Shown here: positions 59,074 through 60,648 of the stretch, one piece after another
Layout of the letters: every line of letters begins with the position of its first letter
How positions within the stretch are numbered: the stretch's first letter is position 1
Assembly: GCF_025685575.1 (NCBI RefSeq)
Contig: NZ_JAGSYD010000001.1
Coordinates: 1,181,852-1,245,851 of the forward strand
Direction: 5' to 3'
DNA from: Granulicella cerasi
GTDB taxonomy: Bacteria > Acidobacteriota > Terriglobia > Terriglobales > Acidobacteriaceae
DNA: 64,000 nt
The notes under the pieces: generated by a model
Seen by the model: only the letters and a program-made list of their open reading frames with translations
Told to the model about the DNA's origin: nothing
Databases searched by the model: none
Program-made: the position numbers and the translations under genes

Positions 59074-60648
59074 CTATTCCGAATACTCGACGCGGGCGCG
59101 GACGCGGCCTTCGCCGAAGCGCGCCACGATGCCCTGGCCGGAGTGCAGTTGCGCGGCCTTGCGCACCAGCTTGCCTTCGCTCGTGTAAACCAGCGAATAT
59201 CCGCGTTCGAGCACAGCGAGCGGGCTCAGCGCGCCCAGCCGCAACGCTGCGCGATCAAGCTGCGTTTGGCGCTGGTCGATCATCTTCGCGCGCTGCTGCT
59301 CGAGCCGCGCTGTGAGCGCTTCGAGGCGGCTGCGATCGCCAGCGAGCTTCAGCGCGGGATGGTGTCGGCGCAGTGTCGCTTCCAGGCGGTCCAGCTGCGA
59401 GTGCTGCTTGCGAACGCGCTGCTGCACGGCGTTCTCGGCACGGTAGTCGAGCTCATCAACACGCTGTGCGCGGCGGCGCAACAGGTCTTCGATGCGACCG
59501 ACGAGCCGCTGTTCGCCGAGCCCGGCGAAGCGTTGGCGAGCGCGCAGAAGCTCGTAGCGGCTCGCACGCTGCAGGCGTTGCGTCAGGCGATCGACCTGCT
59601 CCTCCACGCGATGTTGCGCGGCCGTGAGCAATTCGGCTGCGGCAGAAGGCGTGGGCGCGCAGACGTCTGCCGCGGCGTCGGCGATCACGCAGTCCGGCGC
59701 GTGGCCGATGCCGGTGATGACCGGCACGCTGCAGGCGGCGATGGCGCGCGCGACCTCCTCGGCGTCGAAGCCGTGCAGGTCCTCCCAGCTTCCTCCGCCG
59801 CGCGCGACGAGCACCACGTCCACCCGCTCAGGATGCGCGGAGAACCAGCGCACGCCGGCGGCCACTTCGGCAGGGCAGTTCGGCCCCTGAACGGCGGCGT
59901 GATAAACGAGCAGATTGACCGCAGCATGGCGTCGTCGGCAGACCTTGACGATGTCGCGCAACGCCGCGCCCTGCAGGCTGGTGACGATGCCAATGCAGCG
60001 CGGAAACGCGGGCAGCGGGCGCTGGCGGTCGAAGAGCCCCTCGCGGCGCAGGCGCTCCTTGAGCTGGCGCACGGCCTCGAGCATCGCGCCCAGGCCGACC
60101 TGCTCCATGCGCTCGGCGACCATCTGCATCTGGCCGCGCGCTTCGTAGATGCTGAGCGAGCCGGTGATGCGGACGGCATCGCCGTCCTTGGGGCGGAACT
60201 TGACGCGCATGGCCTCGCGGCGGAACATGACGATCTGCAACTGCGCGCCGTTGTCCTTGAGCGTGAAGTAGCAGTGGCCGCTCGTCGCCGGACGCCAGTT
60301 GGAGATTTCGCCTTCGACGGTGACACTGCCGAAGCGGTTCTCGACGAGGCCGCGAACGCGGCTGATGAGTTGCGAGACGGAGAAGACGGCCGGCTCGGGT
60401 GCTGGCGGAGGTGTCGGGGGTTCGAATCCCTCCCTGTCCGCCACGTTCGCCACCGGGGCGAGAGCGGACTTCTTTTCGACGATGACCGCCGGAGGCTCCT
60501 CCGCAAACAGCGCCTCGCCAAACAGCGCCTCGCCAAACAACGAGGGCATCGCCGGAGCGTTGGAACGGGCTTTCTTGCGCGCGCCTTTTTTCAGCCAGAG
60601 ATCGGCTGCGGTCGGCACTGCATCCGGATTGCGGGAGTCCTCGGCCAT
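59074..60648 (-). CDS. xseA: exodeoxyribonuclease VII large subunit, N-terminally extended
   Basis: 524 aa subunit of the single-strand DNA exonuclease. The core begins at about residue 88 with FSVSQLISRVRGLVENRF and the OB-fold (VEGEISNWRPATSGHCYFTL); the catalytic region shows GIVTSLQGAALRDI, VDVVLVARGGGSWEDLHGF and the conserved GIGHAPDC. Helical coiled-coil follows (REELRARQ-like region, LEQQRAKMIDQRQTQL). An extra N-terminal stretch of about 85 residues is lineage-specific and includes a repeated SLFGEALFGEALFAEE segment and, at about 69-78, sequence coded antisense to a tRNA-Ser 3' end. The small subunit XseB is not adjacent. TACACT lies eight bases before the ATG. Confidence 0.92.
   Translation of the reverse strand: MAEDSRNPDAVPTAADLWLKKGARKKARSNAPAMPSLFGEALFGEALFAEEPPAVIVEKKSALAPVANVADREGFEPPTPPPAPEPAVFSVSQLISRVRGLVENRFGSVTVEGEISNWRPATSGHCYFTLKDNGAQLQIVMFRREAMRVKFRPKDGDAVRITGSLSIYEARGQMQMVAERMEQVGLGAMLEAVRQLKERLRREGLFDRQRPLPAFPRCIGIVTSLQGAALRDIVKVCRRRHAAVNLLVYHAAVQGPNCPAEVAAGVRWFSAHPERVDVVLVARGGGSWEDLHGFDAEEVARAIAACSVPVITGIGHAPDCVIADAAADVCAPTPSAAAELLTAAQHRVEEQVDRLTQRLQRASRYELLRARQRFAGLGEQRLVGRIEDLLRRRAQRVDELDYRAENAVQQRVRKQHSQLDRLEATLRRHHPALKLAGDRSRLEALTARLEQQRAKMIDQRQTQLDRAALRLGALSPLAVLERGYSLVYTSEGKLVRKAAQLHSGQGIVARFGEGRVRARVEYSE
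60416..60443 (+). other. tRNA-Ser 3'-end fragment inside xseA
   Basis: Reading the plus strand: T-stem GGGGG, T-loop TTCGAAT, T-stem CCCTC, acceptor strand CCTGTCC, discriminator G and CCA, exactly in tRNA order. G73 is typical of tRNA-Ser. No matching 5' half (expected GGACAGG) is seen in the 60-90 bases upstream. It overlaps the xseA coding region antisense, where it encodes the peptide ADREGFEPPT. It could be an old attachment site or a captured fragment. Confidence 0.7.
60509..60538. repeat. 15-bp tandem repeat inside xseA
   Basis: Two perfect copies of AGCGCCTCGCCAAAC (60509-60523, 60524-60538), preceded by a partial copy. In frame with xseA, it doubles a five-residue unit (LFGEA). Confidence 0.9.

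What the first reader, a model, noticed from the sequence alone, without database searches (positions are those of the whole stretch)
60416..60443. Exact tRNA-Ser 3' end antisense inside the xseA coding region
The plus strand holds a full T-arm, acceptor 3' strand, discriminator G and CCA with no 5' half nearby, and it is translated in xseA as ADREGFEPPT in a non-conserved N-terminal extension. Mobile elements often integrate at tRNA 3' ends, so this could be an attachment-site scar or a captured tRNA end. GFEPP-type peptides occur in protein databases where ORFs run antisense through tRNA genes; here the fragment lies in an open essential-type gene.
Basis: partly seen in the sequence, partly recalled or inferred. 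Interest (0 to 1): 0.7.

Follow-up and report, generated by a model that had tools for sequence, protein, structure and literature searches.

The report
tRNA-Ser end copied into xseA gene
A 29-base exact copy of the end of this soil bacterium's own serine tRNA gene sits inside the flexible front part of an intact DNA-repair enzyme gene, where it is read backwards as about ten tolerated amino acids; it is real but most likely a functionless genomic scar.

Summary
Window 60415-60443 (+) is a 29/29 exact copy of the 3' end (T-arm, acceptor 3' strand, discriminator G, CCA) of the genome's own tRNA-Ser(CGA) gene, which lies on another contig. It lies antisense inside an intact xseA (exonuclease VII large subunit), in the unconserved linker before the OB-fold. 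Control matches in this window reach 10-11 bases. Relatives' xseA lack it: their linkers share at most 9 bases with the tRNA. Only this genome and two near relatives have a tRNA-Ser ending exactly this way, so the copy is lineage-specific and probably recent.

The attachment-scar reading is only partly supported. The same T-arm-to-CCA segment is a known integrase core (phage Ms6; about half of Islander islands) and occurs as lone cores in viral contigs. Here, however, both flanks are native xseA, gene order is undisturbed in two relatives, no tyrosine integrase lies nearby, and donor and copy are not in island configuration. Genuine tRNA islands in this genome look different.

Best reading: a one-off templated copy of the tRNA gene end, joined at TGGCGGAC microhomology, in frame and tolerated in a linker. 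It matters little beyond annotation.

The parts
60415..60443 (+). 29-base exact copy of the 3' end of tRNA-Ser(CGA) (one variable-loop base, T-stem, T-loop, acceptor 3' strand, G73, CCA)
59074..60648 (-). xseA, exonuclease VII large subunit, 524 aa, intact; reads the fragment antisense, codons 69-79 VADREGFEPPT
60436..60443 (-). TGGCGGAC at the CCA side of the fragment; with the preceding base it makes GTGGCGGAC, next to GTGGCGAAC (60445-60453), an 8-of-9 tandem pair in the linker: candidate microhomology
   Evidence: sequence; alignment
60415..60435 (-). 21 bases (7 codons, REGFEPP) of tRNA identity beyond the candidate microhomology

Best explanation
It is a short copy of the bacterium's own tRNA-Ser(CGA) gene 3' end that was pasted, in frame and antisense, into the linker of xseA. 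The most likely route is a DNA-templated repair or replication error: a broken or stalled xseA strand paired at the 8-base microhomology TGGCGGAC, copied about 20 further bases of the tRNA gene, and rejoined xseA. The product adds roughly REGFEPP to a non-conserved linker, keeps the frame and was tolerated. Shown: exact identity, donor tRNA gene, intact host gene, absence from relatives, in-frame position, a Ku gene in the genome. Inferred: the templated-copy mechanism, that the microhomology is older than the copy, and the absence of function.
For: 29/29 identity with unrelated flanks. In the genus only G000, G006 and G009 have an exact match to this tRNA-Ser end; the rest differ at 1-3 of 25 bases, so the donor is of this subclade and most simply the genome itself. 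The xseA linkers of G006 and G009 share only 7 and 9 bases with the tRNA, and those of 14 measured relatives at most 9; none of the 29 relatives translated shows the FEPP peptide. The single AGG codon of xseA lies in the fragment, and GGA is 4 of 36 Gly codons. Microhomology with a linker tandem pair sits at the CCA-side junction and 21 bases (7 codons) lie beyond it. The same linker has a second tandem duplication, FGEALFGEALF, so it undergoes small rearrangements. The genome encodes Ku and no PF00078 reverse transcriptase was found.
Against: tRNA genes make up only about 0.1% of the genome, so a random donor would rarely be one, although the finding was picked because it looks like a tRNA. 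The copy spans almost exactly T-stem start to CCA, a natural unit for integrases or tRNA-derived RNAs. The closest relative held is only 71% identical in XseA, so the empty site, the true breakpoints and the age of the microhomology cannot be seen.
Confidence: 0.5

Rival explanations
1. Attachment-site scar: a phage or island whose attP holds the tRNA-Ser T-arm and acceptor end integrated at a secondary site in xseA and was later lost, leaving the core behind.
For: The segment is exactly what T-loop type integrases use: the Ms6 core is 26 bases from T-stem to the tRNA end (PMC1762012) and 1836 of 3919 Islander islands use T-stem region sites (PMC4383910). Lone cores of this tRNA-Ser end occur in viral contigs (13 of 81 scored matches), in one case next to a gene with a weak integrase match (L118). 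A 27-base T-arm type pair at tRNA-Arg occurs in a genus member (G016:C20).
Against: Both flanks are native xseA and synteny is undisturbed in G006 and G009. No PF00589 gene on C1 and none within 60 kb of the donor tRNA. Precise excision restores the original site and would not leave a whole core. The three genuine-looking cis pairs in this genome have longer cores reaching into the anticodon region, two with an integrase beside the tRNA.
Confidence: 0.28
2. RNA-templated capture: a 3' tRNA-derived fragment (T-arm to CCA) was copied into DNA during repair.
For: The limits of the copy are close to those of a T-arm-to-CCA tRNA fragment.
Against: CCA is encoded in the gene, so it does not point to RNA. 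No PF00078 reverse transcriptase was found in the genome.
Confidence: 0.06
3. The fragment came in with foreign DNA, for example phage DNA carrying the tRNA end, by recombination into xseA.
For: Viral contigs carry the 25-base end exactly.
Against: Flanks are native xseA on both sides, and the resident tRNA gene is a sufficient donor.
Confidence: 0.08
4. Assembly artefact or chance identity.
For: The two copies lie on different contigs of a 7-contig assembly.
Against: Chance is excluded by length. A misjoin would not leave xseA reading frame and native sequence on both sides.
Confidence: 0.02

Closest known systems
tRNA gene fragments left by integrative elements (Islander, PMC4383910; van der Gulik et al. 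2023, PMC9897764)
   Same: A 3' tRNA end without its 5' half, identical to a resident tRNA gene
   Different: No island between tRNA and fragment, different contigs, no integrase nearby, fragment inside a conserved gene with native DNA on both sides
T-loop type attP/attB cores such as mycobacteriophage Ms6 (PMC1762012)
   Same: Same part of the tRNA, T-arm plus acceptor 3' strand, similar length (26 against 28-29 bases)
   Different: No element, integrase or attL/attR pair here; serine rather than alanine tRNA
CRISPR spacer holding a tRNA gene fragment (Thermococcus nautili, PMC9897764)
   Same: An isolated tRNA piece far from any tRNA gene
   Different: Here it lies in a coding gene and matches the host's own tRNA
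AntiFam-type spurious proteins translated from RNA genes (general knowledge)
   Same: GFEPP-type peptide produced by reading a tRNA end antisense
   Different: The host frame is a genuine gene, xseA; only the segment is tRNA-derived

Membership tests
Integrative-element tRNA att fragment (Islander criteria) | Fragment is an end piece of a resident tRNA gene | tested here: met
   29/29 identity to the tRNA-Ser(CGA) 3' end
Integrative-element tRNA att fragment (Islander criteria) | tRNA and fragment bound an island of 2-200 kb, fragment downstream in the same orientation | tested here: not met
   C6:66933 (+) and C1:1242294 (+) are on different contigs; in a matching orientation the interval would exceed 1 Mb
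Integrative-element tRNA att fragment (Islander criteria) | Integrase gene in or overlapping the island | tested here: not met
   None of 11 PF00589 matches is on C1; those on C6 are over 60 kb from the tRNA. Serine recombinases were not searched
Integrative-element tRNA att fragment (Islander criteria) | Fragment does not overlap a Pfam domain of a coding gene | tested here: met
   Codons 69-79; the first Pfam domain starts at residue 89
Scar of an element once integrated in xseA | Element or core at this locus in a relative | tested here: not met
   G006 and G009 are syntenic without insert or core; no same-species strain was available
Functional tRNA gene | Complete cloverleaf with a 3-base anticodon | tested here: not met
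xseA, exonuclease VII large subunit | OB-fold and Exonuc_VII_L domains, TIGR00237 above cut-off | tested here: met

The most novel reading that the evidence does not exclude
The xseA messenger carries a 29-base perfect complement of tRNA-Ser(CGA); it could pair with that tRNA or its 3' fragments and so tie exonuclease VII expression to tRNA damage or supply.
Probability: 0.02. Interest if true: 0.7.

Novelty: new variant of a known kind. Interest (0 to 1): 0.3.

Why it matters
Isolated tRNA ends are normally taken as marks of an integrated island. This is a clear case where such a mark lies inside an intact housekeeping gene without an island, so it warns against automatic att calls and false tRNA calls. 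It also shows how a tRNA piece can become coding sequence. If sister strains revealed the empty site, it would show whether bacteria make short templated insertions from tRNA genes or whether integrases can leave whole cores behind.

Tried and rejected
Functional tRNA: rejected. Rfam hits at the site are all below gathering scores. Assembly misjoin: rejected because native xseA continues in frame on both sides. Ancestral xseA sequence: rejected, absent from all relatives checked. Two apparent lone tRNA-Glu ends in relatives (G016:C19:793240, G007:C1:358217) turned out, on reading the upstream sequence, to look like complete tRNA-Glu genes that ARAGORN missed, so they are not parallels. Integrase search beside lone viral cores gave only one weak match (L118). 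Linker length comparison gave no sign of added length, as own and G006 unaligned linker stretches are similar (272 and 281 bases between aligned blocks) and the linker varies too much. Literature searches found no report of a tRNA end inside xseA.

Full report
The fragment. Window 60415-60443 on the plus strand reads CGGGGGTTCGAATCCCTCCCTGTCCGCCA. The genome (4.08 Mb, 7 contigs) holds the last 28 bases exactly twice: here and as the 3' end of tRNA-Ser(CGA) at C6:66906-66933; ARAGORN confirms the latter as a complete tRNA-Ser(CGA). The identity is 29 bases long and ends abruptly on both sides. The best match of the tRNA on the other strand of the window, or on the reversed window, is 10-11 bases. 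The identity is not chance. The fragment alone is no tRNA: ARAGORN's 'tRNA-???' call has a 4-base anticodon and the RNA folds no better than shuffles.

The host gene. The minus-strand ORF 60648-59074 is a complete xseA with OB-fold and Exonuc_VII_L domains and 449 bits to TIGR00237. The fragment supplies codons 69-79 (VADREGFEPPT), before the domains start at residues 89-90. The N-terminal part is native xseA: the start region and the SLF motif have counterparts in relatives. Gene order on both sides is kept in G006 and in L127, the contig of G009. The only AGG codon of the gene lies in the fragment.

Relatives and timing. xseA was found in 57 of 61 genomes. None of the 29 relatives whose N-terminus was translated has the peptide. 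In 14 relatives measured, the linker shares at most 9 bases with the tRNA. In the genus, only G000, G006 and G009 have an exact match to this tRNA-Ser end; others differ at one to three of 25 bases. The three share the whole 29-mer in tRNA-Ser(CGA). The simplest history is one insertion in this lineage after its split from G006, with the resident tRNA gene as donor. xseA is about 75% identical in DNA to G006; 29 unchanged bases in an otherwise fast-changing linker suggest the copy is recent (inference).

Is it an att scar? The segment is the right one: Ms6 uses a 26-base core from T-stem to tRNA end (PMC1762012), and about half of Islander islands use T-stem region sites (PMC4383910). Viral contigs hold lone cores of tRNA-Ser ends (13 of 81 scored matches). 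But the configuration is wrong. Donor and copy lie on different contigs and in an arrangement that would need an interval above 1 Mb; no tyrosine integrase is on C1 or within 60 kb of the tRNA; both flanks are native gene. Three cis pairs in the same genome, at tRNA-Val(GAC), tRNA-Val(CAC) and a tRNA read as Glu, have longer shared segments reaching into the anticodon region, and the last two have an integrase next to the tRNA. Also, precise excision from a secondary site would restore the site, not leave a whole core (general knowledge of tyrosine recombinases).

Best mechanism. At the CCA-side junction the xseA sense strand reads GTGGCGAAC GTGGCGGAC AGGGAGGG..., an 8-of-9 tandem pair whose second unit is shared with the tRNA end (TGGCGGAC). 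If that unit is native, only 21 bases, exactly seven codons, were added. A strand switch at this microhomology, copying about 20 bases of the tRNA gene before returning, explains the exactness, the frame and the ordinary flanks. The genome has Ku, so end joining is available; no PF00078 reverse transcriptase was found. The step is inferred: no close enough relative shows the empty site, and the neat T-stem-to-CCA limits remain a point for integrase or RNA routes. The copy is most likely neutral.

Limits. Only tyrosine integrases were searched. tRNA-like ends were surveyed by patterns that cover most but not all tRNAs, and the output was truncated. No same-species strain was held.

Noticed in passing
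G000:C3:753484 and C3:842523 (L123, L124): About 50 bases of tRNA-Val(CAC) 3' end repeated 89 kb apart, same strand, integrase beside the tRNA at C3:841841: a candidate 89-kb genomic island.
   Followed up: partly
G000:C6:189353 and C6:214816 (L125, L126): About 45 bases of a tRNA (Glu by sequence) repeated 25 kb apart with an integrase beside it at C6:189547: a candidate 25-kb island near the contig end.
   Followed up: partly
G000:C1:727686 and C1:729237 (L122): tRNA-Val(GAC) 3' part repeated 1.55 kb away with similarity running at least 60 bases beyond CCA, like a segmental duplication or tandem att.
   Followed up: no
window 60505-60540: 15-base tandem duplication in the same xseA linker (FGEALFGEALF), a sign that the linker changes by small rearrangements.
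   Followed up: no
L102 and L110 (viral contigs): Two viral contigs share a lone tRNA-Ser 25-base core with the same right flank (TATTCTATAAGGGTTTGCGG); neighbouring ORFs tested have no Pfam match.
   Followed up: partly
G016:C20:384068 and C20:447793 (L330, L217): 27-base T-arm type tRNA-Arg end 64 kb downstream of tRNA-Arg(ACG), no PF00589 gene listed between them.
   Followed up: partly
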